Origin: Carnobacterium divergens DSM 20623 | GTDB lineage: Bacteria > Bacillota > Bacilli > Lactobacillales > Carnobacteriaceae | NCBI RefSeq assembly: GCF_000744255.1 | Contig: NZ_JQLO01000001.1 | Coordinates: 248,001 to 312,000, forward strand | DNA length: 64,000 nt | Reading direction: 5' to 3' | Shown here: piece by piece, positions 42,455-58,955 of the stretch | Numbering within the stretch: position 1 is the stretch's first letter | How the letters are laid out: every line of letters starts with the position of its first letter | Notes under the pieces: model-generated | What the model saw: the letters and a program-made list of their open reading frames with translations, nothing else | What the model was told of the DNA's origin: nothing | Databases searched by the model: none | Translations under genes and position numbers: made by a program

Positions 42455-42489
42455 TAGAAATAAAATGTAGACTGGTTTTTACACCGGAT

Positions 42490-43650
42490 TCAAAAATTAC
42501 AGTATTTTGCCAGTTTATCAGAAGTGTTTTTCTTGCCTGTATTTGTCACATGAGTATAAATTTCTAGTGTGACATCTGATGTTTTATGACCTAGCTGTTG
42601 TTGCACTTCTGGAACGGTAGCACCTGCTTCGAAAAGTAAGGAAGCACAAGTATGTCTGAATCCATGGGGTGTAATTTTTTCAACTGGTATTTTTGAATGA
42701 GGTACTTCAACCAATCATTTACCAATTGCGGATAATAAAGTTCATTACGATTATTCGTAAAAATAAATTGTTCCTCACTGTTTGTGTTGTAACCTAGCTT
42801 AAAATAGTCTTCACGTTGCTTTATACGCTATTTGGAAAGAATCTCAAAGAGTTTATTGTCTAACTCTAAAGTACGCTCAGAACTCTTCGTTTTAGGTGTT
42901 TGAATCACAAATTTACCAAATCCATCTGTTGCTAGTGTTTTTCCAATGGTTAGTTTCTTTTCCGTAAAATCAATATCATGCCATTGCGCTGCTAAAAGTT
43001 CTGATTTTCGACAACCAGTAAAAGCGAGTAAACGGAAAAAAGGTAAACTGTTTCTTGTTGCCAAAGTCTGTTAAACAATCAAAGAACTGTTTTAATTCTT
43101 CTTTATCATAAAAATTATCTACTTTTTCTTCTTCTTTTTTCCTTGGAATCAACGTTTTACTCATAGGGTTACTATCCATAATTTCCATTGCAATCCCAAA
43201 TTTAAAAATCTGAGCAGTTTGTTTTCTCAAGTAAGCCATATCGCTTATATTTTCCATGCCAGATATTGACTTGTTTTTGGCAAAAGGCAACGGTAATTTT
43301 ATTCAGTTTAAGTTTGCTGAATACAGGTAGGATATGGATTTTACAAAATCTTTGGGCTAAAGCAATACTTGATGGTTTGACACTTAAGCGATATTGACTT
43401 AACCATAGCTCATACAACTGTTGAAAAGTAATAATTTTTAAGCTGTTTTCAAAGCCATTTTGTTCATAATCAAGATGTAACTTTCTACATGCGTGTTGGC
43501 ATTTTTTTTTCGTTTTAAACTCTCTTCGAGTTGCACGAAATTCTTTTCCAGTAATTTTATCAGACTCTAAGTACGTTCTAAATTCTCAAGATACACTTTT
43601 TTCGGTACATTGCCATAAAACAAGTTCTCTTCTTCTTTCTCGTGGGCGAA
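42490..43650 (-). pseudogene. Decayed tyrosine-recombinase (phage-type) integrase
   Basis: Pieces of one integrase lie in several frames on the minus strand. N-terminal part (about 43440-43650), core-binding part with CKIHILPVFSKLKLNKI (43202-43417), NPMSKTLIPRKKEE (43100-43200), the catalytic Arg box TGCRKSELLAAQW (near 43000), and the C-terminal HGFRHTCASLLFEAG plus LGHKTSDVTLEIYTH (42490-42714) with the HxxR and Tyr residues. Frameshifts and stops separate them, so the enzyme cannot be made. The gene ends about 100 bases from sufB, the usual position of an island integrase. Confidence 0.9.
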
Positions 43651-43729
43651 CGGTTGATAAGTATTTGATTGGCAACTTTTGCTCATTTTCACTATCGATA
43701 TAATCAGTTAATATACTTTGAATATTTTT

Positions 43730-44038
43730 TTATTTATGCATCAACTGAGGCGACAAGAAAATTTTTAAGAAGACATCGTTAAGCAATGAATTCTTATTTA
43801 ATTGTTGTTTAATTTGAAAATCAATAACACAATAAATTGTGTCATCTGAAACTGGCTGGAAATAGTGAATGAAAAATTCGAACTGAATCGTTATTTCTGA
43901 ATCTTCAGATGTCGGTACTAATTTCAAAGATTGAAATAAATAAGTGTTTATCGTTAATTGTAAAGTTTCATTTTCGGGCGGTGAATCTAAATCGTAGTCT
44001 TCATTTGTTGTTTGAATAACTATTTTAAATGTATCCAA
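43730..44038 (-). CDS. Hypothetical protein, possibly remnant
   Basis: 102 codons from a TTG; the frame stays open upstream to about 44107 (adding KLEVVSYRQNPDNLLDTF) but without an ATG or a good ribosome site, so the true start may be lost. The protein is acidic with alternating hydrophobic strands (LQLTINTYLFQSLKLV, ITIQFEFFIHYF), no recognised family. It lies between the integrase remnant and the first defence locus. The 44040-44388 stretch is very AT-rich and holds no other gene that I can support. Confidence 0.4.
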   Translation of the reverse strand: MDTFKIVIQTTNEDYDLDSPPENETLQLTINTYLFQSLKLVPTSEDSEITIQFEFFIHYFQPVSDDTIYCVIDFQIKQQLNKNSLLNDVFLKIFLSPQLMHK

Positions 44039-44388
44039 TAAATTATCAGGATTTTGTCTGTAAGATACAACTTCTAATTTTTGATTTTTTTGATATTTTA
44101 AAGTGGTTGAATTCAGATTTTAAAATAATTAACTTCTTTTTTTAGTTTTAATTTGAATATGAGGAACATATGTTAGGATAGTTTTAATTATTTGTAACTT
44201 ATTTTTTTATAACGAAAATAATTATAAATGAGAAACATATTGTTACTATTGAAAATAAATGATAGAATCAATAATGAATAGATAAGTTTTTTTCTATATG
44301 GAAAAAATGATTGTAAACTACAAGTATATTGGATTCGTTAAATGAACAGTAGTAATCAAAAATTATTTTAATGACAGGGAGTTAAATT

Positions 44389-45536
44389 ATGATGGAGGTA
44401 GGCAACGTTATGGGTGGTATATCTAGTTTAGGTGGATTTGCTTTTCAAATCAGGGTATTCTTGTATTATTTACTTAATTTAGATGAAAATGAGATGATTG
44501 AATTTGAAGCTATTGATGATATTAATGTTAGTAAAATAGAATCTTTAAATATCGATAAATATGAAATTTCATTTATTAGTAAAATAAAAAAATAGATATA
44601 TCCCATCATGCTATTCAAGTCAAGAGAACAAACATTGATACGAGTACCGCGAGGAAAATTTTATTTAATTGGCTTTTAATTGAAATAGAGAATATAAATG
44701 TAGAACGATATACTTTACTAACTAGCGATTTAACTGTAAAAGATACTATAATAAGCAATTTAGATAAACATGATATATATATTTTTTTAAAGAATTCAAA
44801 AAAGAAAAAAAGCTCAAATGAAGCTAAATTAAAATTTTTTTTTGGAGCGAAATTTGATGAGTTTGAAACTTACTTTGATTCTGTTGTTGATAAACATGAA
44901 ATTGTTAGATTGGATAATGTAAATGAAATTATAGATCAAAATTGTAAGTATTTATTCAAGAAAAGTGGAGTAGATATATCTGTTTATAATTTAAGGGTAA
45001 GCCAACTATTAAATTATATAACATGCGAGATTTTAAATAGTATCCATGACAAGCGAAGTTTTGCTATTACGTATGCTAAGTTTATGCAAGAAGCAGAAAA
45101 TATATCAAATAATGCAACAGATGAAAGGATTAGTTTATCTTATTCTGAATTCAAACGAAATCATTCTATTGATTTGAATGAATTAGCTATTGCGAAATCT
45201 AGAGAGTATCAACAATTATTACATTGTGAAATGCCTAAAGCATTATTAACTGATTTTTTAACTAAGAGATTATACTATGGTCAATATAGAGCTTTGAATA
45301 TAGAATGCAATACTATACAACCAATAAATGATATTGAAGTTACAACTCATGAAAACTTTGTATTGGCAACAGAACAATTAAAGTATGATGGAAATGATAC
45401 ACCTAGACAAAGACTAAACAATACTATAAATCTGGAGAATAGCTATGCGGAAAATGTTCAGATTCGTCATGGAGTATGTGTTCATATGACAAAAGACGCC
45501 AAAAAACAAGATCAAATTTCTTGGAAGGATGAATAA
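44389..45536 (+). pseudogene. ABC-3C type nuclease/effector gene, frameshifted at an A7 run
   Basis: The first frame (44389-44595) encodes GGISSLGGFAFQIRVFLYY and EFEAIDD, the start of a DUF4297/Cap4-like double-strand nuclease fold, and stops at TAG. The -1 frame is open through to 45536 and continues with IDISHHAIQVKRTNID, where QVK fits the nuclease core, then a C-terminal domain (about 44910-45536) ending in QIRHGVCVHMTKD. The break is at ATA-AAA-AAA-TAG, so the slippery heptamer A-AAA-AAA (44586-44592) sits directly on the stop. A -1 slip or one extra A restores a ~382-residue protein. Followed by the middle component and ABC ATPase genes. GGGAG ribosome site before ATG 44389. Confidence 0.75.
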
Positions 45537-45538
45537 AT

Positions 45539-45976
45539 TTGAATGAATTGGAGATTGAAACTGAGATTGTTCAAATATCTTCTTATTGTGAAATAATATG
45601 TTGTATTTTAAAAACTCATAGAATTTTAAGTATCAATAAGATTATATTTTTTTCATATTTGATTAAACAGAAAAAATTTACTTTTAAAGAAGTTTATTCA
45701 GGAAATACTAAGAGAGATGTAATATTTAAATGTATCTCATTACTTTCGGGTGAATTTGAGGATTACTGTAATAGTATTTCTTTTATCATAAAATCTATTC
45801 ATTTATTAATTTTAAATGATAAGATTAAATTAAGTAATGGATTATTAATTCTTAATAATGAAGAAGGAAATGTTTCTCGAATATATGAATTGAATATTTT
45901 TATAAATAAAGCTATTGAAGAAAGTAGAAATTTGACTGAAAAACAATTTATGAGAGAGGTGATGCGTTGTGTTTAA
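45539..45976 (+). CDS. ABC-three-component system, middle component
   Basis: 145 residues, TTG start with AAGGATG eight bases upstream, three bases after the nuclease gene and overlapping the ATPase gene by eight. Small alpha-helical protein with SLLSGEFEDYCNSISFIIKS and IHLLILNDKIKL, resembling the small middle components of ABC-3C loci. In such systems it is thought to link the ATPase to the effector. Identification rests mainly on operon position plus size and partial sequence resemblance. Confidence 0.7.
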   Translation: MNELEIETEIVQISSYCEIICCILKTHRILSINKIIFFSYLIKQKKFTFKEVYSGNTKRDVIFKCISLLSGEFEDYCNSISFIIKSIHLLILNDKIKLSNGLLILNNEEGNVSRIYELNIFINKAIEESRNLTEKQFMREVMRCV

Positions 45977-47723
45977 AATAGACGAATTAAATTTATTAAG
46001 TAAATCTGGTGAAATATTTACTTATAAATTTTCAAATGGAATTAATTATTTCAAAGGGAAAAATAGTTCTGGTAAAAGTGAATTCTATAAATTTTTAGAT
46101 TTTATGTTTGGATCATCAGAGGATATAAGTAAGAACCGTTTATATAATGACACTATAGAACGCGCATCAATGTTAATATGTGTTAATGGCATAAAGTATT
46201 CTCTTACTAGAACTCGTGATATAGATAAAAATTATCTTCATTATACTGCGGAAGAAAAATTTGAAATTATTACTTTGAGAGAATATAAGAATAAATTAAA
46301 TTCAATATTTACAAAAGATGATTTTATGTTAAAAAAAATAAGAGAATTTACAAATGAAAATTTGACTTTCAGAACATTCACGATGTTTAATTTCTGGGGA
46401 GAGAAAAGACAAGGATTAATACAAGACTTTCTAGATAAATGTTCTGATATAAAATATTCAGTAAAATTGTCTCCTTTATTAAATTATATATTTAACGAGA
46501 ACTTAATAAAAATAAGTAAGCTACAAAAGGAATTACTAGAATTAAATGAAAATATTAAAGTTTTAGAGAAGCAATCTGCACGTTATTCATTTGTATGTGA
46601 GCAAATAAATAAATCGTTGAAAATATTAGATGCTGACATTGTTTATAATGGAAAAAATTCAAAAAAGGTACAGACTGTTATTGAAAAAATAAAATTAATG
46701 CAAGAGATGCAAAGAAAAAACTCCAGTAATAATATAGTAAAGTTGAAAGTGGCTTTTAATAAAATATCAGAACAAATTAAGGTTTATGAAAATACAATTT
46801 CGGATGTTAAGCAGTTTGAGATTGAAGATCAGAATAGAAAAATTTTGATAGGAAATTTAAATGAGCTCATTGAAAGAGAACATTCTTTTGAATATTTGGT
46901 AGAACCACTTAAATCAATTATTGACGAATTAGATACAACTATTTCATTTAATAATTACGTAATTAATGATAAAACAATTAAAGAATTAAAAAAACAACGA
47001 AGCAATTTGAAAAATGAAATTCAGTCTAATAATTCTAAATTTGAAATGTATTCACTTGAAGAAAAACAGAAAGCAATGGCTATAGTTGAAGAATATCTTT
47101 CAACAGATATTGTTTTTTCAGATGAAAAACTAAGTAGTATGAAAAAAAAGCTGATAGAATTAAAAAATACAATAAAAATACTCCAAAATGAAGATGATTA
47201 TAGAAAAATTAATCAGCTATCTCAGTATATTACAGATTTATATTTGTCGGCTAAAGACATTTCATCATTGGTTGATGATGATTTGAAACAAAATGGATTT
47301 AGAATTGATTATATAAAAAGGGGAAATATACTTCAACCCAAGGTAGAAGAGACAAAGAATGATGGAGAATATAGTGAAAATAATTTTGTGAATTTATATA
47401 TAGGAAGTATGGCTAGGCATACGTTGATACAGTTATGTGGCTATTTAGGATTTATGAATTTACTATTAATTGAAAACGCATATCCTATAATTCCAGTGCT
47501 TATTATTGATCATGTTTCAAAACCATTTGATGAAACTAATTCTAAAGCAATCGGAACAGTAATTAATAAAGTGTATGAAACGATAGATAAAGATGATTTA
47601 CAAATATTTTTATTTGATGATGAAGACCCCGAAACATTAGCTATTGTTCCAGATCACTTTGAAAATTTAGTGAATGATAGCAAAACTGGTTTTAATCCGT
47701 TTTATTTTGATGTAAGAGATTAA
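45969..47723 (+). CDS. ABC-three-component system ATPase (SMC/Rad50-like)
   Basis: 584 residues, GTG start. Walker A FKGKNSSGKSEFYKF at residues 28-42, a long helical middle (about 165-430) with coiled-coil character, then the signature region GSMARHTLIQLCGYLGF and the Walker B IPVLIIDHVSKPFDE near the C-terminus. Here the Walker B Glu is replaced by His, a pattern seen in ABC-3C ATPases. It should act as a DNA- or nucleoprotein-sensing ATPase. The P-loop is intact and the gene is complete even though the nuclease gene is frameshifted. Confidence 0.8.
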   Translation: MFKIDELNLLSKSGEIFTYKFSNGINYFKGKNSSGKSEFYKFLDFMFGSSEDISKNRLYNDTIERASMLICVNGIKYSLTRTRDIDKNYLHYTAEEKFEIITLREYKNKLNSIFTKDDFMLKKIREFTNENLTFRTFTMFNFWGEKRQGLIQDFLDKCSDIKYSVKLSPLLNYIFNENLIKISKLQKELLELNENIKVLEKQSARYSFVCEQINKSLKILDADIVYNGKNSKKVQTVIEKIKLMQEMQRKNSSNNIVKLKVAFNKISEQIKVYENTISDVKQFEIEDQNRKILIGNLNELIEREHSFEYLVEPLKSIIDELDTTISFNNYVINDKTIKELKKQRSNLKNEIQSNNSKFEMYSLEEKQKAMAIVEEYLSTDIVFSDEKLSSMKKKLIELKNTIKILQNEDDYRKINQLSQYITDLYLSAKDISSLVDDDLKQNGFRIDYIKRGNILQPKVEETKNDGEYSENNFVNLYIGSMARHTLIQLCGYLGFMNLLLIENAYPIIPVLIIDHVSKPFDETNSKAIGTVINKVYETIDKDDLQIFLFDDEDPETLAIVPDHFENLVNDSKTGFNPFYFDVRD

Positions 47724-47901
47724 CAGTGAAAGTCATATTTTTATATATCGAAACTTACACGGGATGACTTCAAAATCAATGAAATTAATTGCAATATTAA
47801 AATTTCCTAACTACTTAAAACTCTTGATATTACTGATATTTTAATCTATCTTAATCACAACTCGATATTGGAGGAATCGGTTGGATAGTAAAAAAATAGA
47901 A

Positions 47902-47940
47902 GTTAAGAACACAGTTATAGTGGTGTGTTCTTAATTTTTT
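47902..47940 (+). terminator. Intrinsic terminator of the ABC-3C operon
   Basis: ttaagaacac / gtgttcttaa with a T run about 180 bases after the ATPase gene. The remaining 47941-48589 stretch is AT-rich and without a convincing gene; short minus-strand runs such as MKIRDLVEWIQNPHIYAQKN (near 48280-48330) may be scraps of a lost gene. Confidence 0.65.
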
Positions 47941-48589
47941 TGATTTTGAAAAGTAAAAGTAGTACCAATATTTCAATATTTAGAAAAAGATGAGGCAAAA
48001 GAAATCGAGCTAAGTGAAATTCAATTCTAAAAAATGCTGTGCTAATGACAGAAATGACTATAGAAAGTTTGATAATTGTATTGATGTTAATATAATTATT
48101 AAAGAATATGTTTTATCTGTAGGTTCAATATAAGTGTTGTGAATAAGTATATGTGATAAGTATTTTATCAGAAGATACCACTGATTTAAATGAGTGAGCA
48201 GGAGGAAAAGGAAAATTTGATTTGTAAGGTTAATTGGTTGAATGTGACCTATTTAAAAAATTATTCATTTTTTTGAGCATAAATATGTGGATTTTGAATC
48301 CATTCAACTAGATCTCTGATTTTCATATTGTTTTTTAATTTTTTCAAATTCTTTATAGATTCTACTTCATATTAATTCATTTCTTTTTTTTGTTCTCTTT
48401 AATTGTGTTGGATGGAAACTTGGTTTAATTTTGAATTATAACTATATATGGTTATAATGAGCGTTTTTCATCCCTTTGCAATACCAAACCAAACAATGTC
48501 TTCATTTGTTAATACGACTTTTCAGAAATTTTATAAGTTAGAGTTAATTCATTTTTTAAGATTTCATTTTTATTATAATTCCATAATTT

Positions 48590-49846
48590 TCATCTATCGT
48601 ATGCATACAAATTTTCTAAAATATTTTGACTTATAATCTTTGAAAAATGTGGAGGAACAGCATTTCCAATTTGTTTAAATGCTGCAGTTCTAGAACTTTC
48701 AAAGTAAAAATCATCTGGGAACGTTTGAATTCTTGCTGCTTCACGAACTGTGATTGAGCGATTTTGAGATACATCCGGATGAATATAATAATGGCCATCT
48801 TTTGAAATATGAGCAACCACAGTATGGCTAAATCCGTTTCCATTTACAGCTTTAAATCTATCTAAAAAAATATCTGATTTTTTATGTGTGATTAATTCAG
48901 ATGGAAGGTCAGAATATTTAACATTTCTATTTTTTATTCTTTCATTTGCAACGATATTATAAATTTTTAGGTCGTTTTCGTTATTAGGGCGACAGATATT
49001 TTGAGTCAATGGAATTTCTACATTTCTTAAGTTCTTTGAAACATATTCTGAAGGCAATAAACTCGAATATGTATTTTTTGTTTCACCAGACTTCAATTTT
49101 GGTAAATCTTTAAATAATTCCTTGATTATTGGAGGTTTTTCTTGGAATTGCTCCAAGCTTTTGAAAAAATCAAATTTTTGCATTGAAGTTTTATATCCGA
49201 AAATGAATAATCTTTCTCTAACTTGAGGAACGCCGAAGTCAGCACAGTTAATCAATTTAATTTGTATATGGTAATGATTTATTGAAATGACATTTGTAAA
49301 CTCGTATTTTATTTTGTCTAAGAGATTATATCCATCTAAGTCTTTAAAGGATATCAATCCTTTAACATTTTCAAATACAAAAAAATCAGGATTATATTTT
49401 TCTAAAAACTTCAAATAGTATTTATACAAATAGATTCGTTCATCAGATTCTTTAATTTTTTCATTTCTTGCTCGCCCGATAGTTGAATATGCTTGGCATG
49501 GTGGTCCTCCGATAATACCATGGACTGTATTTGAATCTGGTTGTGAATCAATTTTTCTAAATATTTCTGGTAAAGTCTCTTCAGATATTGTTATATTCAT
49601 TACTTTTCCAGCGATTTCTTCAGGAATTTCAGCCAAGAATTCATCGTATGAAATCTTTCCTTCAATGTAACTGCAGTATTTAGTTAAATTTCCTGTACTT
49701 TTTAAGTAGTAGTAAGCATCTCTAATTTTCAATGTTTTACTTGTGGCTTCATCCATTTCAACGTGGGCAAGCAGATTGAAAGAATTATTCCTAAAACCTT
49801 CGGTTAAACCTCCGGCACCTGAAAATAAGTCTATAATATTTAACAT
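48590..49846 (-). CDS. drmMII: DNA (cytosine-5) methyltransferase, DISARM DrmMII
   Basis: 418 residues with all cytosine-5 methylase blocks: IDLFSGAGGLTEGF (I), the catalytic GGPPCQAYSTIGRAR (IV), FFVFENVKGL (VI), GVPQVRERLFIFGY (VIII), then after a target-recognition region SITVREAARIQTFPDDF (IX) and FKQIGNAVPPHFSK (X). Such a gene beside drmE-drmA-drmB marks class 2 DISARM, where the methylase protects host DNA. It is transcribed away from drmE. The recognised DNA site is not deducible. No restriction endonuclease gene is next to it. Confidence 0.92.
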   Translation of the reverse strand: MLNIIDLFSGAGGLTEGFRNNSFNLLAHVEMDEATSKTLKIRDAYYYLKSTGNLTKYCSYIEGKISYDEFLAEIPEEIAGKVMNITISEETLPEIFRKIDSQPDSNTVHGIIGGPPCQAYSTIGRARNEKIKESDERIYLYKYYLKFLEKYNPDFFVFENVKGLISFKDLDGYNLLDKIKYEFTNVISINHYHIQIKLINCADFGVPQVRERLFIFGYKTSMQKFDFFKSLEQFQEKPPIIKELFKDLPKLKSGETKNTYSSLLPSEYVSKNLRNVEIPLTQNICRPNNENDLKIYNIVANERIKNRNVKYSDLPSELITHKKSDIFLDRFKAVNGNGFSHTVVAHISKDGHYYIHPDVSQNRSITVREAARIQTFPDDFYFESSRTAAFKQIGNAVPPHFSKIISQNILENLYAYDR

Positions 49847-49996
49847 GATTTCACCTCAGAATAATTATACCAGGTTTGCAACAACTCTACTAGAGTAAAA
49901 AGAAAATTTAGTGAAAGTATGACTAAGATAGTTGGGAATAAGTGTGCAAATTAGTGTATAATTTTAATCATAGATAGTAAAAAAGGAGGAAGTAAT
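49847..49996. promoter_or_regulatory. Divergent promoter region of the DISARM-type locus
   Basis: 150 bases between drmMII and drmE. On the plus strand TATAAT (49957-49962) is a clear -10, with a poor -35 match, followed by the AAAGGAGGAAG ribosome site of drmE. Both arms of the system can be controlled here. No regulator gene is present. Confidence 0.5.
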
Positions 49997-52423
49997 ATGG
50001 ATGCTGTAATGCAACTCCTAGTATCAACCAGTCCATTTGGATATATTTCAAAAAATATGAAAAAAATATTGAATGATTTCTTAGCGTATGAAACTCTTGG
50101 AAAATCATACGCATATCAGTATTTAAATTCTTGTTACTATAAGGAATTGACTTTGTTGATTTGTTTAATGACTAGCTACAAAAATATTTCAAATGGAAAA
50201 AAAATTAATATAGACAATTTGAATATTGGAACTAAAATCTTATTTCAGAAGGAATACTATGTTTTTAATGGACAAGATAACGAGAGTGAAGGATATTCAT
50301 TGATTCAGTTACACAAGAAAAATCCGGTTACACGAATTTTAAAAAAAGATGTAATTGAAGCTGGGGCTAGCGTTGTAAGTAGTACCAAAAGAAGAAAAGT
50401 AGTAAGTGTTAAAGAAGATTTTGGAAAACAATTAGGACTTTCTTCGATAAGCTGGACAAATGAAGACAGTGTGATAGTAATTCTAGAGAAAAAAATATTA
50501 AATAAAATTATGGATGTACAATTTAGTCTTAATGGTAAATCTTCGTATTTAGGTGAATTTTGTGCGATAAAGTATTTGAAGGAATCAATGATTTTGGAAC
50601 AGTTACCACATTCTAACAGTACAGAGAAACCCATGGTTATTTTTTCATCAAATATGGGGGCGGTCATAGAATATTTAGATGAAAATGATGGGGAAATATC
50701 AGAAAAACGGGTATATATTATTGGAGATAAGTGGTTTGAAAACGGTCAATTTTCTAATTTGCTTACCCTTGAAGATGCTTGTAGTGATTTCAATATTCCT
50801 ATGACAGTTTTTTCTAGTGTTCCCTCAATTATGGATCAATCAAAATTCAAATTTTTGAAAAAAATGGAAAAAGAATTTTGTTGGCTTGAATCAGAAGCGT
50901 TTAGTGAGATGGATATTTCTTTTAAATTCGTATCGAGCAACAAAGCGTTTAGAAACTATTTAGATAAACTTGACGAATATTTAGAAGAAATTCGTGAAAT
51001 TCATTTATTAAGATACTTAGATAAACTATTGAAAAGATTTTTGAAAATGAACTATAGCAAAATAACTGGAAATTCAGAATCACTTGAGCAACAAATGATT
51101 ATTATTTCTGAATATATGGAAAAATTAAATTTAGAAGAGACTGAAGAAATTGCTGAGATTTTATATAATATTTACTGTAACAGATTTGGTTATCAAAATA
51201 AGAAAATAATTGATTTGGTTAGAAATGAGGATAAATGTGCACTGATTGTAATGGATGAGATGGTTGAAGAAACAAAAGAAATATATATAAATGATGATAT
51301 GATAACTGTTCTGCCTTATAGTGAAGCGATATTTGAGGATTTATACGGAGCATTTGGTACTATTATTTTACTTTCTCCATATGCAAAGGACAGAAAGAAG
51401 TGGCTGTCAAGTTATGTATCCAATAGAATTATTGTGGTTTTTCCAGATATTCAAAAAAAATATTTTAGCTACTCCTTAAAAAAAGATAAAAGAATTATCC
51501 AAGATTTGTATAAGTTGGATGATAGTTATTTTGAACGAGATTCAGCGTATTTAAAAGCAATTGATAAGTACTTTGAAAAAAATAAAAAAGAAACGATTAG
51601 AACAGATAATAGTAGCGAAGAGAAGCTACTATTTGATGAATTAGATAGAGAAGATAATGCACAAAAATCATACTCTATCTTGATAGATAGCTTAATGAAA
51701 GCTGTTTCTGAAGTTGAGAGCGAAAATGAATCTCAGTTTGTTAATGTTGTTCGTGGAATAGGTTTGGAATCGGGGAGAAATCTACTTGGAACAGAATTTG
51801 GAAAGATTTTTATTTTACAAGATAATTATTGTAGAAAAGTGGATGTTAGTAAAATAGAAATTGGTCAAAATATTGTGGAATTCGAAATTCCTTATTCAGA
51901 TTCTTTTTACAGGACACAGTTTAAAAAATATAATTTTAAAGATGAATATTTAAATTTGAGTAATATTACTGAAAATATAAAATTGGATTATTTCTGGAAA
52001 AAAATCTTACTTGATTATATTGAACAGGGAGAAGTAACTTCGGCTCAATTCAAAGAAAGAATGGATAAATTAGGTGCACCATATAAGACAAAGTCTTTTT
52101 ACGGATCATGGTCATCAATTGAAAAAATGCCAATTCTACCACGGGATTCTAGTTTCATCTATTATATCGGAATCCTTACAGGAAATTCTAAATTAATAAA
52201 TGAGTCTGACAAGTATTATAGTGCAAGTGAGAAAGTAAAGAGAAATTTAAATCAGGAAAGAGATAAGCTTATTGATTCATTTGATGGGCAAAATTTGGAT
52301 GAAATCATAAAAGATGAATCTATAGCTTCTTATTCAATAGATAAAGTAATTTTAGTTGAAGGTATAGATATTGAAGATGTGCCAAGGTATCTGACTAATA
52401 AGATTCTGGGAGGAAGTAGATAA
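49997..52423 (+). CDS. drmE: DISARM class 2 protein DrmE
   Basis: 808 residues, in the position (before drmA, beside drmMII) and with the length expected for DrmE, the class 2-specific component of unknown biochemistry. N-terminal PFGYISKNMKKILNDFL and YAYQYLNSCYYKELTLLICL; mid-region VIFSSNMGAVIEYLDEN and RVYIIGDKWF look like a nucleotide-free helicase-like fold; the C-terminus includes TSAQFKERMDKLGAPYKTKSF. No Walker motif is seen. Identification is by synteny and general resemblance. Stop and drmA start share an A (TAATG), so the two are translationally coupled. Confidence 0.82.
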   Translation: MDAVMQLLVSTSPFGYISKNMKKILNDFLAYETLGKSYAYQYLNSCYYKELTLLICLMTSYKNISNGKKINIDNLNIGTKILFQKEYYVFNGQDNESEGYSLIQLHKKNPVTRILKKDVIEAGASVVSSTKRRKVVSVKEDFGKQLGLSSISWTNEDSVIVILEKKILNKIMDVQFSLNGKSSYLGEFCAIKYLKESMILEQLPHSNSTEKPMVIFSSNMGAVIEYLDENDGEISEKRVYIIGDKWFENGQFSNLLTLEDACSDFNIPMTVFSSVPSIMDQSKFKFLKKMEKEFCWLESEAFSEMDISFKFVSSNKAFRNYLDKLDEYLEEIREIHLLRYLDKLLKRFLKMNYSKITGNSESLEQQMIIISEYMEKLNLEETEEIAEILYNIYCNRFGYQNKKIIDLVRNEDKCALIVMDEMVEETKEIYINDDMITVLPYSEAIFEDLYGAFGTIILLSPYAKDRKKWLSSYVSNRIIVVFPDIQKKYFSYSLKKDKRIIQDLYKLDDSYFERDSAYLKAIDKYFEKNKKETIRTDNSSEEKLLFDELDREDNAQKSYSILIDSLMKAVSEVESENESQFVNVVRGIGLESGRNLLGTEFGKIFILQDNYCRKVDVSKIEIGQNIVEFEIPYSDSFYRTQFKKYNFKDEYLNLSNITENIKLDYFWKKILLDYIEQGEVTSAQFKERMDKLGAPYKTKSFYGSWSSIEKMPILPRDSSFIYYIGILTGNSKLINESDKYYSASEKVKRNLNQERDKLIDSFDGQNLDEIIKDESIASYSIDKVILVEGIDIEDVPRYLTNKILGGSR

Positions 52424-55400
52424 TGGTAGGAATTACAGATAAGAAAGTTCAAAATAATGTTAGGGAAAAGTATTCTAATGCTATTTCACAATTGTTATTG
52501 GGGCCGGGGTCAGAAAAAATAAACAATGATGTTGAGCATGAGATAATTTCTGAAAAACCACAAACAAGGTATGTTACAGGAATCTTGTATCCTTTCAATG
52601 AATTAAAAAAAGCTTTGGATGAAGATATAGAAACAACCCTTGAAGCTCAAGAATTTTTAGATAAAGAAGAAGAGTCTACTGAAATTGATAACAGCTTTCT
52701 TCCATCTTCTCTAGGAATTACATTTTACTGTAAGAGTAACAAAAAAGATTTAAATATTGAGGTTCTTAGTTCTTATTATAAGAAAGTCAAGAATCCATTT
52801 CTTCAAACAAATAAAGAGGTACTTGAAGAATTAAAAGAAAAAATTATAATTTCGAAAGTTGTAAATATCGAAAAACTTTTTGAAATTGATAAAGAGAGTT
52901 CAAAAATTAAATATGATGAAGGATTTGAAGATAGAGATGAAACCATATCTGATTTTTTGAATGAGTTAAAACCAAAAGAGAAAATTAAAGATACAGAACT
53001 GTTATTTTTACTAAAAAAGATTAAAAACATAAATTATGGAAACAAGAGGTGTTTTGAGCGAGTTCCAGTTTCCTTTGAAGTGAGGATAGATTCTTCAGAA
53101 GAAAGAATATCTACTCAAGAGTTATTAGTTAAGGAAGAAAAGACGTTTCAAATCTTTTCAAAAGTACAAAAAATAAATCTGATAAATAATGAAACCGTTA
53201 CATCGATAACGGTTGTTTTAAAAAACATTTCAGAAAATCACTTTTTTCAAACAGAAATCATTATAAAATCTCAAGAAAACGTTGAATTTAAAGCTTCTGA
53301 AGATGTGAAATTGCCGGATTTGTCTAAATTAAATTCAGAAGATGCCATGAATTTTTTCTTATACAGAGATAAAAGGACCTATGCTTTCGGAAGAGGTGTA
53401 TCTGCAACTTGGAAAGAAAACAATGGAAAGATATCCGAAATCAAAACGTCATATATTCCAACTTATGAGTTACGACCGATGTCCTTTGATGTTGATGGTA
53501 TTTCGTCGGATGTTTTAAGTGCAGAAAGTTATATTGGGAACGACCACGAGATACAGGTAGAAAAATTGAATCAGTTTGTTGAAGCTTACGACAAATGGAT
53601 TGATTCAATTACGCAAAAATCTAAGTTGTTGGTTTCTGAATATACTGAGCTTTCAAAGGAAAATATAGAAAAATGTAGAAATTGTAGTCATCGTATGAAA
53701 AAAACGATAAAATTCTTGGCAAATGATAAAGAAGCTTTCATGGCATTTAATAAAGCCAACGAAGCAATGCTTTTACAAAGATTAAAAAATTCAATAGAAA
53801 AAGAAGAAGCATATAGCTCGAAAAACTATCAAAATGCAAACTTTAAGTGGAGACCATTCCAATTGGCTTTTGTGTTAAATTCGTTAGAGTCGATTTTGAA
53901 TGAAGAAAGTTCTGAGCGAGAAATGCTAGATTTAATTTGGGTTAGTACAGGTGGTGGAAAAACAGAGGCTTATTTATTTGCAATCGCAGCTGTTGTAGTT
54001 TATAGAAGATTGAAATATGAGAACTGCTCAGGTGTAACAGTAATCATGAGATATACTTTACGACTTCTGACAGCACAACAATTTGATCGGGCTTCTCAAT
54101 TAATTTGTGCGCTAGAGTTCATTAGAAGGCGAGAGGATTTTTTAGGTGATTTGGAAATTAGCATTGGACTTTGGATAGGTGAAGGAACCAAAAATAAACT
54201 AAAAGATGCTAAGTCAGACTTTAAAGATATGGTTGAACAAAAAAGCCTTGAAGCTGCAAAGAAAAAAAATACATTTCAAGTTTTGGAATGTCCCTGGTGC
54301 CATCAACAGCACAGTATTGTTCCTGATGAAAAAAACTTTCAAAGCAAAAGAAAATGGGGATACTACGAAATTGAAAAGAAAAATGGCTTCAACATGAAAT
54401 GTTTAAATAAAAATTGTGAGTTTTCTAAAGGTTTGCCAATCTATGTAGTCGATGAATTAATTTATGAAAAGAGACCAACATTGCTTTTTGGTACTGTGGA
54501 CAAGTTCGCTCAAGTTCCTTTAAAAGAAGAAACAGCAAATTTATTTGGTTCCGATAAACCAGAAAAGTATAGACGTCCTGAGTTAATTATCCAAGATGAA
54601 TTACATTTGATTTCTGGTCCGTTAGGAAGTATTGTTGGTCTTTATGAAGCAGGGTTTGATTATATTCTCAAAAATGCAAATAATAGCGTTGCTCCTAAAT
54701 ATATAGCTTCGACTGCAACAATTAGAAATGCAGCTGATCAAGTAAAAGGTATTTTTGATAGAAAGGTATCTCAATTTCCTCCAAGTGGAATTGAGATTTC
54801 AGATAATTTTTTTGTAAAAGAAGACACAAAGTCATACGGAAGACAGTACCTTGGAATTATGGCAACAGGAAAATCACAAATAACAGCCGAAATTCGACTG
54901 CTATCATCAATGTTACAAACAGTAACAGAGTTAGGTCTAAATATCGATGAAGAAGAATTATATTGGACGGTCGCCGGTTATTTTAATAGTATTCGAGAAC
55001 TTGGTAAAGCCTCAGGGCTGATTAAAGATGATGTAAAAGAACATATTAATCAACTTTATAGACGAAATAATACGAATAAACGTTTCATGAATGATGATAC
55101 AGGTGTTGAATTGACCGCACGTGTACCTGGGATAGAAATACCTACGATTTTAAAAAAATTGGATGTTCCTCATAATAGATCTCCAGAAGAAATTCAGAAT
55201 GGAGAAAAATATTCAAGAACTGTAGATACGTTAATTGCAACAAATATGTTGTCAGTAGGTGTTGATATTAATCGATTAAATGCAATGTTTGTAGTCGGAC
55301 AGCCTAAACTAACATCAGAGTATATTCAAGCTACCAGTCGAGTGGGAAGACAGTCTTTAGGATTAGTGTGCACACTATATAATTCTTCTCGAAGTCGTGA

Positions 55401-55902
55401 TAGGTCTCATTACGAAACGTTTCAATCTTACCATGAAAGTTTATATAAATTTGTTGAATCGAGTAGCGTCACACCATTTTCAGTACCTGCTTTAAAAAAA
55501 GCTGTTGCTGGAGTAATAGTTTCAATGCTTAGGAATACAATTGAAATATTATCTGGCGATGATTCTGCAAGGAACATTTTAGAATTTGAAGATGAACTTG
55601 AAAAAGTTAAGGATTATCTTTTGGCTAGAGTTAGAGCTAGTGAAGATAGACATCACCTTTACAGAGAAGATGCAAATAAAATAATAAATAAAGTTGTTGA
55701 TAAATGGTGTGATATTGCTGAAGAGATAGAAGAAAATGACGAAATGTTCAAATATTATCTATACAAGAGTATGACAGAAGATTTTCAAGGGAAACTATTA
55801 CTTAGATCCTTTGATGACAGAAGCACCCATCAAGAAGCTACTAAAGTTATGGGGACAATGAGGAACGTGGAAGATACAGCATATCTGAGAATAATAGATT
55901 AG
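52423..55902 (+). CDS. drmA: DISARM helicase DrmA
   Basis: 1159 residues. About 480 residues of N-terminal DNA-engaging region precede the helicase core: motif I WVSTGGGKTEAYLF, motif Ia MRYTLRLLTAQQFDRA, a four-Cys zinc-like insert (CPWCHQQH and CLNKNCEF), DELH box IIQDELHLISGPLGS, motif III IASTATIRNA, and motifs V/VI NMLSVGVDINRLNAMFV and QATSRVGRQSLG. These match DrmA, the SF2 helicase that with DrmB forms the DNA-loading core of DISARM. All motifs are intact. GGGAGGAAG site. Confidence 0.92.
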   Translation: MVGITDKKVQNNVREKYSNAISQLLLGPGSEKINNDVEHEIISEKPQTRYVTGILYPFNELKKALDEDIETTLEAQEFLDKEEESTEIDNSFLPSSLGITFYCKSNKKDLNIEVLSSYYKKVKNPFLQTNKEVLEELKEKIIISKVVNIEKLFEIDKESSKIKYDEGFEDRDETISDFLNELKPKEKIKDTELLFLLKKIKNINYGNKRCFERVPVSFEVRIDSSEERISTQELLVKEEKTFQIFSKVQKINLINNETVTSITVVLKNISENHFFQTEIIIKSQENVEFKASEDVKLPDLSKLNSEDAMNFFLYRDKRTYAFGRGVSATWKENNGKISEIKTSYIPTYELRPMSFDVDGISSDVLSAESYIGNDHEIQVEKLNQFVEAYDKWIDSITQKSKLLVSEYTELSKENIEKCRNCSHRMKKTIKFLANDKEAFMAFNKANEAMLLQRLKNSIEKEEAYSSKNYQNANFKWRPFQLAFVLNSLESILNEESSEREMLDLIWVSTGGGKTEAYLFAIAAVVVYRRLKYENCSGVTVIMRYTLRLLTAQQFDRASQLICALEFIRRREDFLGDLEISIGLWIGEGTKNKLKDAKSDFKDMVEQKSLEAAKKKNTFQVLECPWCHQQHSIVPDEKNFQSKRKWGYYEIEKKNGFNMKCLNKNCEFSKGLPIYVVDELIYEKRPTLLFGTVDKFAQVPLKEETANLFGSDKPEKYRRPELIIQDELHLISGPLGSIVGLYEAGFDYILKNANNSVAPKYIASTATIRNAADQVKGIFDRKVSQFPPSGIEISDNFFVKEDTKSYGRQYLGIMATGKSQITAEIRLLSSMLQTVTELGLNIDEEELYWTVAGYFNSIRELGKASGLIKDDVKEHINQLYRRNNTNKRFMNDDTGVELTARVPGIEIPTILKKLDVPHNRSPEEIQNGEKYSRTVDTLIATNMLSVGVDINRLNAMFVVGQPKLTSEYIQATSRVGRQSLGLVCTLYNSSRSRDRSHYETFQSYHESLYKFVESSSVTPFSVPALKKAVAGVIVSMLRNTIEILSGDDSARNILEFEDELEKVKDYLLARVRASEDRHHLYREDANKIINKVVDKWCDIAEEIEENDEMFKYYLYKSMTEDFQGKLLLRSFDDRSTHQEATKVMGTMRNVEDTAYLRIID

Positions 55903-55912
55903 AGGAGATATT

Positions 55913-57802
55913 ATGGTATATAAACGAAAAGATAAACCTGAGTTCAATGTTAGAAGATCTCAACTTTTAACGCCATTTGGCATTGGAGCATTAATGGACA
56001 TTAATAATCAATCTGTTATGATTGCGGATTCGGAGTATTGGGATACTAATAAATGTGTAAAAGTTCATGATATTCGTTTAGAGAAAGTCCTAGATGCTGA
56101 AGGTTTTATTGAGCCACCGGTTAAGGAGGAAGAGGATGTTGTAGGAAAAAGATTCCCACAGTGGTATTTTTCACCAGAAGATAGAAGTTTAAGAAAAATT
56201 GATTCATGGCGTCAATTAGTAGAAGCAAAAGGAATACCGAGCTTAGTCAAAGCATTTAATCAAAAACCAATTGATGTTCGTAAAAGAAGAACAGAACTTG
56301 TTCCTGTCCGTATTATTTGTGCGTGTTGTAATGGACATGCGCAAGACTTTCCTTGGTTAGAATGGGTTCATGAAGGCTTAAGTTATGATAGTTATAAAGA
56401 TCATGAAATTACATTGGGAAGTACAGCACAAACTGGGTCTATTTCAGATTTAATAGTTTCGTGTAAAAGATGCAATGAGAGCCGAAATTTAGCTGGAGTA
56501 TTTGATGAAAAGAATTTTCCAAAGAAATTAGAGCGATTAGGGGTAGGTTGTAAAGGTGAATACATTTGGAAGAAAGGAGAAGAAGGAAGTAAATGTGAAG
56601 AAGATGTTCATGTGCTTCTGAGAAATGCTAATAATTTCTTTTTCCCAAACATTTCAAGTTCAGTGAATATTCCATTCAAAGAGAATAAACTAATTGAACT
56701 AATTCAAAGTAACAAATATTATAGCGTCTTGGCATCAGAATTAAGAGAAGTCCCTCGAGAAAAAGGAATTACAAAACTTAAAGAGGATGAATTAATAAAT
56801 AAAATGATTGCACGATTAGCTCAGGAAATTGAGCATGATCTTGATGAAGTTAAAAATTTAATTTCAATTAAGTTTTTTGATAAAGCTAGTGAAGATCATC
56901 CTGATAGTGTAATGGACTATAGAAGAGCAGAGTTTGAAGTGCTATCCGGAAAAGAAAAATATGATGAGGAGTCAGAAAGATTTAAAATAAAAGCTTTCAA
57001 ACGAGAAGATTTGTCTGGTTACACTCATAGTGAATTATTGAATGGGATAACTTTGGTACATCAACTTGAGGTAGTTAATGCTCTTCGAAGTTATAGTAGA
57101 ATTCAAACTACTGATTCAGAATTGATGAAGGAGCAATCCTTAGATGGTGAGAAGACTTTGGGTAAATCCTTTGAAATTTCACTGCGAAGAAAGGATAACT
57201 ATTATGTCGGAATGCGTTCATTAGGAGAAGGAATATTTTTTTCTATGAATAGTGAAGAAATAAAAAAATGGAAATCTAAAATCAAAGAGTCCGCAATTTC
57301 AAAAAAAATATATAAAAAAATGAGCAATGTAAGATTTCCAGATGAGGAAAGCTATATTTCTCCAGATTATTATCTTATTCATACTTTATCACATTTACTC
57401 ATTAAAGAATTGAGTATGAGCAGTGGTTATTCTTCATCTTCATTGAGGGAAAGGATATATTATTCAGATGAAGATGGGCAGGAAATGTATGGAATTTTGA
57501 TTTATACATCGAGTTCTGATTCTGAAGGAACATTAGGTGGGTTAGTTAAGCAGGGGGTACCAGAAAAATTCTTTGAATTGTTAACTGCTGCGTTAGAAAA
57601 AGCGAAATGGTGTAGCTTTGATCCAGTCTGCATTGAGAGTAATTCTCAAGGTCGAGAGTCATTAAATGCTGCTGCATGTCATGCTTGCTCACTTATTTCG
57701 GAGACTAGTTGTGAGAAAATGAATGTTTTTTTAGATAGAAGTGTGCTAATTGGTAGTATAGAAGAGCCATATTTAGGATTTTTTTGCGGAGGAAATAATT
57801 AA
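55913..57802 (+). CDS. drmB: DISARM protein DrmB (DUF1998)
   Basis: 629 residues beginning with RRSQLLTPFGIGALMDI. Cysteine pairs ICACCNGHAQDF and VSCKRCNES suggest a zinc site. The C-terminal DUF1998 domain has HTLSHLLIKELSM, GILIYTSSSDSEGTLGGL and a Cys cluster CSFDPVCIES / AAACHACSLISETSC. DrmB binds DrmA. AGAGGAGA ribosome site ten bases after drmA; its stop overlaps the next ATG (TAATG). Confidence 0.92.
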   Translation: MVYKRKDKPEFNVRRSQLLTPFGIGALMDINNQSVMIADSEYWDTNKCVKVHDIRLEKVLDAEGFIEPPVKEEEDVVGKRFPQWYFSPEDRSLRKIDSWRQLVEAKGIPSLVKAFNQKPIDVRKRRTELVPVRIICACCNGHAQDFPWLEWVHEGLSYDSYKDHEITLGSTAQTGSISDLIVSCKRCNESRNLAGVFDEKNFPKKLERLGVGCKGEYIWKKGEEGSKCEEDVHVLLRNANNFFFPNISSSVNIPFKENKLIELIQSNKYYSVLASELREVPREKGITKLKEDELINKMIARLAQEIEHDLDEVKNLISIKFFDKASEDHPDSVMDYRRAEFEVLSGKEKYDEESERFKIKAFKREDLSGYTHSELLNGITLVHQLEVVNALRSYSRIQTTDSELMKEQSLDGEKTLGKSFEISLRRKDNYYVGMRSLGEGIFFSMNSEEIKKWKSKIKESAISKKIYKKMSNVRFPDEESYISPDYYLIHTLSHLLIKELSMSSGYSSSSLRERIYYSDEDGQEMYGILIYTSSSDSEGTLGGLVKQGVPEKFFELLTAALEKAKWCSFDPVCIESNSQGRESLNAAACHACSLISETSCEKMNVFLDRSVLIGSIEEPYLGFFCGGNN

Positions 57803-58495
57803 TGACATTTCCAGATTTGATATTTAAGGATAGCTATAAAGAGGTTAGGAGAGTAAAAGAGGCAAATAATTCTTCATTGGCTCAGCGTGATAATGTTGTT
57901 TCAGGGTATCTATTTGATGGTAAATCCACATAGATTATTAGAGAATGAAACAGTTGGAATAGCTAAAAGAGGGTATACTGCAATGAATGTCGTACACTAT
58001 TATGGATTGAGTGACCATCATAAAATTTTTTATAAGAATATTTCATTAAAGGATGGGATAAGTGGGCTGCGGATGTTTGAAGATAAAGAACATTCAACAA
58101 TTGCTGATTTATTGGAACGAGCAAATGACTCATTAATTGAAAGTGAAGTACGAGAATTGTTAGATATTGAGTCAAACAAAAAAGTACCTGATTGGTTAAT
58201 TGAATTAAGAAAAGAACATCCTAATATTGTTGGCTACAATGAGATCACTGAAGTAAACCAAGGTATAGGAAATACAGGACTTATTTCAGAATCAGTAATA
58301 AAATATTCTACTAGAACGATTTCAGATGATGATCTTGAAGTAAATTTGTTAGGTCAAAAGTATTTTGGTAATATTGGCGAAGAACTTGTATTACAACATT
58401 ATGCCAAAATTATTGATATCCTTGGAAATACAGAAAAGACCAAATACTTCATTGATGAAATGAAGTACACCGGAAAGAAACACGAAAAATTTTAA
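57802..58495 (+). pseudogene. Unrecognised DISARM-linked gene, frameshifted
   Basis: The ATG at 57802 overlaps the drmB stop, so it belongs to the operon. Its frame (FPDLIFKDSYKEV ... VVSGYLFDGKS) ends at TAG 57931. The next forward frame is open from 57857 to 58495 and continues naturally (HRLLENETVGIAKRGYTAM, VVHYYGLSDHHKIFYKN), so one base has probably been gained or lost at 57890-57930. The joined product is ~230 residues. It lacks the HxKxxxxD motif of the phospholipase-D protein DrmC expected here. The last 45 residues (GNIGEELVLQHYAK) resemble the beginning of DUF3883-type modules, so the 3' part may also be lost. Function unknown. Confidence 0.6.
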
Positions 58496-58679
58496 TGAAG
58501 AGTAGAATAAAGCATTCGAATTATAAGTATTTATTTCTTTCCTATATACCCACAGATCTTATTTTTTGGAATGTTATTCCCTTAACTTTAATTGAATTAC
58601 GGTGATAATTATTTAAACTGTATATCTCTATAATCGTTGATATTACAGTCATTTCCAACAATTATAAGTTTGCTTCCAT
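58496..58679. other. Non-coding end of the island
   Basis: About 184 AT-rich bases after the frameshifted gene. No gene or clear terminator was found; the stretch runs up to the sufB-end repeat. Confidence 0.5.
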
Positions 58680-58955
58680 ATGGAAAGCAATGTAGGTTAA
58701 ATCTATAAATAAAAATCATAAATACTTTAATAAAGGTGTTTCTGATTTTTTATTTTACTTAAAAGTAAACCAATTATTACACCAGATTCAAAAATCACAG
58801 TTTTTTTGCTAGTTTATCATAAGCATTTTCTTCCCTGTATTTGTCACATCGATATAAATTTCTAATATTTTATGACCTAAAGATTGTTACAATTATGAAA
58901 TAATTGAGCCTATTAAAAAAAGTAGATCAGATAGCTATAAAAATAACTATGAAGA
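58680..58955. repeat. Decayed second copy of sufB 3' end, terminator and integrase tail
   Basis: 58680-58700 repeats the last 21 bases of sufB (18 of 21 identical, would read MESNVG-stop). 58701-58750 follows the sufB terminator (aatactttaataaagg against aacgctttagtaaagg). 58777-58890 follows the integrase 3' end, including accagattcaaaaatcacag and ccctgtatttgtcaca. Weaker similarity goes on to about 58955. Most differences are G-to-A or C-to-T. It is in the same orientation as the copy at 42373-42650, giving an imperfect direct repeat around the defence island. Confidence 0.8.

What the first reader, a model, noticed from the sequence alone, without database searches (positions are those of the whole stretch)
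48590..58495. Class 2 DISARM-type locus without drmC but with an unknown, frameshifted fifth gene
drmMII, drmE, drmA and drmB are complete and in class 2 order, with drmMII divergent. The expected phospholipase-D gene drmC is absent. In its place, translationally coupled to drmB, is a frameshifted gene of unknown family whose end resembles the start of a DUF3883 module. It may be an alternative accessory subunit, now lost, or its loss may leave a reduced system. Reported DISARM work suggests drmC can be dispensable, so defence may persist.
Basis: partly seen in the sequence, partly recalled or inferred. Interest (0 to 1): 0.6.

Follow-up and report, generated by a model that had tools for sequence, protein, structure and literature searches.

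The report
DISARM locus with a broken nuclease
This bacterial anti-phage system keeps its four core genes intact but has lost a DNA-cutting partner gene that sits where its relatives carry other kinds of cutter; it suggests the cutter is a plug-in part of the system, not its heart.

Summary
Window 48590-57802 holds drmMII (divergent), drmE, drmA and drmB, all open: a class 2-like DISARM. There is no phospholipase drmC; none was found beside drmB in any of 16 loci of this branch. The fifth gene is the remnant of a nuclease gene: relatives in Enterococcus thailandicus (333 aa) and Salinicoccus hispanicus (318 aa) directly follow drmB and end in a NOV_C (DUF3883) domain with conserved GYD...EVK residues. 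The window copy is frameshifted near 57928 and its homology stops at 58483, just before those residues. In the branch the slot holds NOV_C (6 of 16), an HNH nuclease (2 of 16) or neither (8 of 16). Of 8 such nuclease copies 4 are damaged, against 2 of 64 core genes. Two canonical class 2 loci have drmC overlapping drmB in the same place. The nuclease's N-terminal part also occurs in HNH endonucleases, some beside C5-methyltransferases. Best reading: a DISARM core with an exchangeable, often-lost, restriction-type nuclease; here only the core survives. A new variant of a known system, moderately interesting.

The parts
48590..49846 (-). drmMII, C5-cytosine DNA methyltransferase, divergent
   Evidence: PDLC02649 DrmMII E 1.9e-133, PF00145 3e-55; PPCQ, ENV, QVRER, GNAVPP motifs present; NG86 dN/dS 0.084 against E. 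thailandicus
49997..52423 (+). drmE
   Evidence: NF038316 DrmE_fam E 2.3e-13 over 12-837/838, below curated cut-off; model pLDDT 82, residues 1-510 arranged like an SF2 helicase; dN/dS 0.156
52423..55902 (+). drmA, SF2 helicase
   Evidence: NF038325 6.8e-264, below curated cut-off; GGGKT, DELH, TAT, QATSRVGR motifs present; dN/dS 0.086
55913..57802 (+). drmB, DUF1998 / MrfA Zn-binding domain protein
   Evidence: NF038324 6.7e-137 over cut-off; PF09369 1.7e-10; dN/dS 0.089
57802..58495 (+). remnant of a NOV_C (DUF3883) nuclease gene in the drmC slot: first 43 codons and stop 57802-57933, then frameshifted body with homology 57929-58483, catalytic C-terminus missing
   Evidence: tblastn with the intact E. 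thailandicus protein: residues 1-43 in one frame (74% id), 44-229 in another (60% id), nothing for 230-329; full-length relatives match PF13020
   Evidence: 3 of 295 order genomes encode a relative, its own included
42463..42566 (.). left copy of an imperfect direct repeat (~105-150 bp) flanking the island
   Evidence: pairs with 58761-58864, equal spacing 16298; blastn 75% over 151 bp, E 5e-23
58761..58864 (.). right copy of the flanking direct repeat
42976..43290 (-). integrase remnant at the left end of the island (named by eye from its translation)
   Evidence: blastn aligns this stretch with G095, where a 380-aa integrase-like ORF (by eye) is intact

Best explanation
The locus is a class 2-like DISARM whose working part is DrmMII + DrmE + DrmA + DrmB. 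Seen in the sequences: different nuclease families occupy the position directly behind drmB. Two canonical class 2 loci have the PLD nuclease DrmC there; this branch has a NOV_C protein, an HNH protein, or neither. In the window the NOV_C gene was inactivated by a frameshift and by loss of its catalytic end, while the other four genes stay open and evolve under constraint. Inferred: the slot is exchangeable and the nuclease is a restriction-type effector. Its N-terminal helical module would read DNA, as in the HNH endonucleases that share it, and DrmMII methylation would spare the host; when intact it would cut DNA on which DrmAB has loaded, or unmethylated DNA on its own. Without it, DrmAB(E) would still block phage by loading on and unwinding DNA, as proposed for DISARM without DrmC.
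For: Core open by profile and motif; NG86 dN/dS against E. thailandicus 0.08-0.16 in the core, 0.29 in the nuclease body. Intact relatives with NOV_C behind drmB; HNH in the slot of E. alishanensis, decayed in Enterococcus sp. ZJ1622. drmC overlaps drmB in L167 and L168 as the NOV_C gene overlaps it in L024. Slot nucleases damaged in 4 of 8, core genes in 2 of 64, Fisher p 0.0009 (0.008 if E. viikkiensis is counted as intact). N-module shared with HNH endonucleases; 3 of 14 module genes have a DrmMII-like methyltransferase within the 1.5 kb held on each side; the one in L124 is 44% identical to window DrmMII and matches PDLC02649 at 2.6e-183. Literature: DrmC dispensable and often missing, DrmAB blocking model (PMC9142583, passages).
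Against: No experiment. NOV_C as an active nuclease rests on family and conserved residues; its model is poor (mostly pLDDT under 50 there) and fold matches weak (best Z 5.5). The damage comparison is biased: loci were found through drmB, relics were sought on purpose, and the E. viikkiensis frameshift lies beyond the core and could be a sequencing error. In Vagococcus the NOV_C gene is the third gene after drmB (gap 2088), and 8 of 16 loci have neither type, so the link may be loose. dS is near 1, so dN/dS values are rough; between E. thailandicus and E. viikkiensis the nuclease gives 0.45 on few changes, weak constraint even where it is nearly intact. drmB itself is damaged in 2 of 16 loci. 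L174 shows a similar methyltransferase-HNH pair behind other defence-like genes, so the nuclease may serve only the methyltransferase.
Confidence: 0.65

Rival explanations
1. The NOV_C gene never worked with DISARM; it is an independent restriction or defence gene that landed next to drmB by defence-island shuffling, and its loss is unrelated to DISARM.
For: NOV_C is the third gene in Vagococcus; 8 of 16 loci have neither nuclease type; the same N-module occurs with HNH domains and methyltransferases away from DISARM, once behind Mza-like genes; PADLOC has NOV_C proteins as candidate PDC-S36 (that the name means a single-gene candidate is recalled).
Against: The gene overlaps drmB in E. thailandicus and E. 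viikkiensis, follows it by 24 bp in Salinicoccus, and its window start codon overlaps the drmB stop; DrmC sits in that place in L167 and L168.
Confidence: 0.22
2. The whole locus is decaying and no longer defends the cell.
For: One gene is already dead; the flanking integrase is a remnant; two other loci have damaged drmB.
Against: All four core frames are open with catalytic motifs in DrmA and DrmMII, and dN/dS is 0.08-0.16 against a relative.
Confidence: 0.12
3. The truncated product is functional: read by programmed frameshifting, or as a catalytically dead N-terminal DNA-binding subunit that targets or regulates DrmAB.
For: The body frame stays open for 202 aa and dN/dS 0.29 is below 1.
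Against: Only 43 codons follow the start at drmB's end; the C-terminal third is absent; in relatives the protein is one frame with the catalytic part.
Confidence: 0.05
4. The frameshift is a sequencing or assembly error and the gene is intact in life.
For: A single shift explains the frame change.
Against: A second lesion removes about 100 residues, and the missing part has no significant match up to 59100; single-contig genome, 99.95% complete.
Confidence: 0.02

Closest known systems
Class 2 DISARM (DrmMII, DrmE, DrmA, DrmB, DrmC)
   Same: DrmE-DrmA-DrmB order with a C5-methyltransferase; each protein a profile relative
   Different: No DrmC; the slot held a NOV_C gene, now broken; DrmE has no PADLOC match and lies below NCBIfam's cut-off
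E. thailandicus / E. viikkiensis loci L024, L036
   Same: Same five genes in the same order, core proteins 70-85% identical to the window's
   Different: Nuclease gene intact (L024) or shifted only beyond its conserved E-V-K (L036)
PDC-S36 (PADLOC candidate with NOV_C)
   Same: C-terminal NOV_C region, E 2.5e-14 for L024
   Different: Match covers residues 144-308 only; the N-module is not covered
Methyltransferase plus HNH endonuclease pairs carrying the same N-module (L106, L113, L124)
   Same: N-module with a DrmMII-like methyltransferase within 1.5 kb; HNH shown by Pfam for L106 and L124, by eye for L113
   Different: HNH instead of NOV_C; no DrmB in the short stretches held nor in the longer stretches L174 and L177
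ARMADA / Druantia / Dpd (YprA helicase systems, PMC12458937)
   Same: YprA-type helicase and DUF1998 module
   Different: There the two parts are typically fused; in DISARM, and here, they are separate adjacent genes (passages)

Membership tests
DISARM | DrmA helicase | tested here: met
   NF038325 E 6.8e-264, 878.7 bits (cut-off 950 not reached); PDLC02575 8.1e-209; motifs present
DISARM | separate DUF1998 protein DrmB | tested here: met
   NF038324 457.8 bits over cut-off 240
DISARM | DNA methyltransferase DrmMI or DrmMII | tested here: met
   PDLC02649 DrmMII E 1.9e-133; methylation itself not testable
DISARM | PLD nuclease DrmC (listed among typical components, but called non-essential and often missing, in PMC9142583, passages) | tested here: not met
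   No PLD motif for 6 kb behind drmB; PLDc_2 only in two ORFs of 489 and 513 aa elsewhere
Class 2 DISARM | DrmE with DrmMII (class definition recalled from Ofir et al. 2018, not held) | tested here: met
   NF038316 full length E 2.3e-13 but 49.4 bits under cut-off 80; PADLOC DrmE none; Pfam DrmE_C none
NOV_C / DUF3883 (PF13020) | NOV_C domain | tested here: not met
   Window ORF has no match; it ends before the core. Its full-length relatives match at 2.4e-11 to 9e-14
PD-(D/E)XK nuclease superfamily (for the intact relatives) | fold and D...ExK active site | tested here: inconclusive
   Y232-D233 and E253-V254-K255 invariant in 4 of 4 relatives, two of which are 96% identical; model poor there, Hjc 2wiw Z 5.0
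DrmC (for the fifth gene) | PLD domain of the DrmC profiles | tested here: not met
   No PADLOC DrmC match at E 0.1 for the window ORF or for the L015 (same contig as L024) and L016 proteins
DISARM | phage restriction | not testable with these tools
   needs plating assays

The most novel reading that the evidence does not exclude
Class 2 DISARM is a two-layer system: a stable core (DrmE-DrmA-DrmB, with DrmMII) plus a swappable restriction-type nuclease cassette behind drmB (PLD, NOV_C or HNH). Cassettes arrive from ordinary restriction-modification systems, some through a shared DNA-reading N-module, and are repeatedly lost because the core defends without them.
Probability: 0.45. Interest if true: 0.6.

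Novelty: new variant of a known kind. Interest (0 to 1): 0.42.

Why it matters
It has been unclear which nuclease DISARM uses, since DrmC can be removed and is often missing (PMC9142583, passages). A branch in which other nucleases stand in DrmC's place, and in which these decay while the core stays, gives natural experiments: related loci with an intact nuclease, a dead one and none can be compared directly.

Tried and rejected
Rejected: fifth gene is a divergent drmC (no PLD); locus belongs to ARMADA, Druantia or Dpd (separate DrmB; DISARM profiles best); sequencing error (two lesions). A DrmC-type hit in 1 of 33 genes behind drmB in the branch: I take it to be the 509-aa gene of L036, the only ORF of those loci with the strict PLD motif; its translation begins with membrane-like stretches and has two HxK motifs, so I read it, by eye, as a cardiolipin synthase. 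The same tally lists single-member matches to other restriction or defence profiles (HNH, mREase_II, REase_II, RecD-like and others); apart from Pfam results for L030 and L031 I did not assign them to genes, so 'neither' in my slot count means neither NOV_C nor the HNH type, by tblastn with four proteins over at most 6 kb (L021: 6.7 kb) behind drmB.

Led nowhere: viral-contig scan with the NOV_C alignment, none of 133 stretches a relative; plasmids hold two partial matches at 31-32% identity; profile searches of solved structures gave designed proteins or chains at E 0.33 or above for the nuclease and its N-module and nothing below E 0.9 for DrmE; Foldseek on the nuclease model, best E 1.0. 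The ~330-aa gene in front of the split drmE was not significantly similar to DrmE's N-half (probability 0.5). The direct repeat was not found in the G025 or G095 stretches, so its role as an attachment site is unproven.

Dropped or limited: the genome-contig scan needs one of two short patterns, so the branch may have more loci. L021 (genome G221) belongs to the branch (DrmE E 1.8e-50) but came by another route; it is in the counts of 16 and not in the tree. Two further L. plantarum plasmids with DrmE were not examined and not counted. Of 80 same-strand genes behind drmB in the other 65 loci I gave 61 to the family search; genes on the opposite strand were not counted. Of 59 and 51 candidate split-drmE genes I aligned 21 and 21. 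Of the 21 genomes I fetched eight. The tree used 16 rows, one an outgroup; 3 of its 13 inner branches are not starred.
Full report
What is there. The window lies in a single-contig genome of 2.62 Mb. Its order is Lactobacillales: genomes G263 and G231 of the 'same order' have contigs of the same lengths (200664 and 56648) as the named records of Enterococcus thailandicus and E. viikkiensis. At 48590-57802 there are four long open frames, the first divergent. Profile searches name them DrmMII, DrmE, DrmA and DrmB. DrmB passes its curated cut-off; DrmA (878.7 of 950 bits) and DrmE (49.4 of 80 bits) do not, and PADLOC has no match for DrmE. The DrmE match nevertheless spans positions 12-837 of 838. 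Catalytic motifs of DrmA and DrmMII are present.

The fifth gene. On its own the 202-aa ORF matches nothing in Pfam (E up to 1), PADLOC or NCBIfam (E up to 0.1). In 295 genomes of the order it is found in 3: its own, and two with longer open frames, in E. thailandicus (333 aa) and E. viikkiensis (305 aa), both overlapping the end of drmB. These match NOV_C, PF13020, at E about 2e-12. An alignment with proteins of Salinicoccus hispanicus and Vagococcus allomyrinae shows invariant H-G-x-G-Y-D and I-E-V-K. That these are the PD-(D/E)XK residues of DUF3883 nucleases is recalled knowledge. Against the E. thailandicus protein the window has residues 1-43 in one frame, 44-229 in another, and nothing beyond. 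The break comes directly before the conserved core. DNA identity is 75% over 787 bp, including the end of drmB, and the alignment stops there. So the gene is dead by two lesions. No NOV_C protein was found elsewhere in the genome.

Is absence of drmC unusual? DrmB is found in 10 of 395 genomes of the order. A scan of the genome collection with a DrmB alignment gave 78 loci. Thirteen of them (L024-L036) have a DrmE that the window DrmE finds at 1e-5; with the window, a Lactiplantibacillus plantarum plasmid (L023) and genome G221 (L021) the branch has 16 loci. No DrmC was found beside drmB in them. Slot contents: NOV_C in E. thailandicus, S. hispanicus (24 bp behind drmB), V. allomyrinae (third gene), E. 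viikkiensis (frame shifted beyond the conserved residues), and relics in the window and in Lentilactobacillus fungorum; HNH in E. alishanensis, and a decayed HNH gene in Enterococcus sp. ZJ1622; neither in 8. One of these 8, Lacticaseibacillus hulanensis, has an AspBHI-N/HNH_2 gene beyond drmMII. So 4 of 8 nuclease copies are damaged, against 2 of 64 core genes (drmB of L034 and L035); Fisher p 0.0009, or 0.008 if E. viikkiensis is taken as intact. The test leans towards the claim, because loci were found through drmB and relics were sought. In a DrmA+DrmB tree of 16 rows (without L021, with an outgroup) the window groups with E. thailandicus and E. viikkiensis (100/100), and the two HNH loci group together (100/100); the Salinicoccus and Vagococcus rows, which hold the other intact NOV_C copies, join at an unresolved deep fork, so gain and loss cannot be told apart.

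The same slot in canonical systems. Among 398 genomes of the class, 21 match DrmE_fam, 9 over the cut-off. Of eight loci fetched from them, two (L167, L168) have a gene with a PLD motif that overlaps drmB and matches DrmC at 6e-16 and 2e-54; of the other six none shows the strict PLD motif, and L172 ends just after drmB. In the 65 other loci of the scan, 61 of 80 same-strand genes behind drmB were searched; matches include Vsr 7, HhH-GPD glycosylase 7, PLDc_2 3, NgoMIV 3, NaeI 2, AspBHI_N 2 and NOV_C 1. Restriction and repair enzymes are therefore common behind drmB, and PLD genes are a minority in this sample.

The N-terminal module. Residues about 20-110 of the nuclease form a helical domain in the model (pLDDT 81-90 per block of ten), with weak likeness to MarR-type winged helices (Z 4.5). 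The module recurs in other proteins of Bacilli: 24 of 398 class genomes match the nuclease alignment, 14 of them by this part. Seven such proteins sent to Pfam all matched an HNH family (L108 below the curated cut-off). Three of 14 have a DrmMII-like methyltransferase within the 1.5 kb held on each side. One of these (L124) is 44% identical to window DrmMII and fits the DrmMII profile better than the window's own protein; it lies behind a row of genes that look to me, by eye, like the Mza system, with a module-HNH gene after it. Of three genomes from which longer stretches around module genes were fetched (L174/L175, L176, L177), two have such a methyltransferase beside the module gene and L176 has none. 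This supports a restriction-type role for the nuclease, methylation by DrmMII being its natural counterpart. It is inference.

Mechanism. The published model has DrmAB loading on 5'-overhang phage DNA, blocking it, and possibly recruiting DrmC or another nuclease; DrmC is dispensable and often missing (PMC9142583, passages). The YprA preprint says DISARM typically has a PLD nuclease after the DUF1998 gene and mentions uncharacterised DISARM-like classes (PMC12458937, abstract and passages). In the window the step that needs a nuclease has lost its local enzyme. The dN/dS of the core (0.084, 0.156, 0.086, 0.089, against 0.29 for the nuclease body; NG86, dS near 1) argues that the core was kept for use over most of that history. 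It cannot show that the core works today. Between E. thailandicus and E. viikkiensis the nuclease gives 0.45 and the core 0.10-0.17, on few changes.

Setting. The island is poor in G+C (0.292 against 0.365 for window 1-42400). A close relative (G025, flanks 98% identical) lacks it and has instead an MzaB-like gene and a shorter MzaC-like gene at the same place; another (G095) has an integrase-like gene there. An imperfect direct repeat flanks the island. The site downstream of sufB (named by eye) looks like a defence hotspot.

Is it in print? Searches of the library for DISARM with drmE/drmMII, DUF3883, YprA/DrmB, drmC/class 2, DrmE/helicase, drmC/Enterococcus, phospholipase/HNH/drmB, DUF3883/nuclease/phage defense and DrmC/restriction endonuclease listed no paper that I could recognise as treating a NOV_C or HNH gene in the DISARM nuclease slot; I judged by listings and, for three papers, passages. 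Lists were cut at 10 to 20 papers. The single DISARM-DUF3883 paper (PMC6098607, passages) mentions the two terms in unrelated places. The original DISARM paper is not held.

Noticed in passing
window 44910-47723: Three-gene row upstream (208, 145 and 584 aa); the last matches Lamassu LmuB (PDLC03859, 4.7e-25), the others match no PADLOC family: perhaps an ABC-ATPase three-component defence system.
   Followed up: partly
window 42463-58864: The whole defence island is flanked by an imperfect ~105-150 bp direct repeat with an integrase remnant (by eye) at its left end; the place holds Mza-like genes in G025 and an integrase-like gene in G095.
   Followed up: partly
window 49997-52423: DrmE model: residues 1-510 resemble the two RecA-like domains of SF2 helicases (Z up to 13.5, rmsd 5.3 over 295), but no Walker A motif is conserved; DrmE may be a degenerate helicase.
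   Followed up: partly
L055:2854-4395 and similar genes in other DISARM loci; L172:4178-5695: A ~500-540 aa gene before drmA is homologous to DrmE residues 275-808 (hhalign probability 95, E 1.8e-8) and follows a ~330-aa gene: DrmE seems to be split in two in many DISARM systems.
   Followed up: partly
L174:9886-19380: A DrmMII-like methyltransferase and a module-HNH endonuclease directly behind what looks, by eye, like an Mza defence system: the pair may be a mobile cassette shared by several defence systems.
   Followed up: partly
L037-L101: Type II restriction enzymes (NgoMIV, NaeI, AspBHI-like), Vsr and HhH-GPD glycosylases are frequent behind drmB.
   Followed up: partly
L031:13696-14727: Lacticaseibacillus hulanensis DISARM has a gene with AspBHI N-terminal and HNH_2 domains next to drmMII.
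   Followed up: no
L030:13029-14792: Schlafen-type helicase with a GIY-YIG match about 1.1 kb behind drmB in Lentilactobacillus fungorum.
   Followed up: no
L029:12043-13755: Two genes (320 and 239 aa) without a PADLOC match between drmB and the NOV_C gene of Vagococcus allomyrinae.
   Followed up: partly
L034:9980-11894, L035:9995-11653: drmB is split in Liquorilactobacillus satsumensis and cut short in Companilactobacillus musae, so some cores decay too.
   Followed up: no
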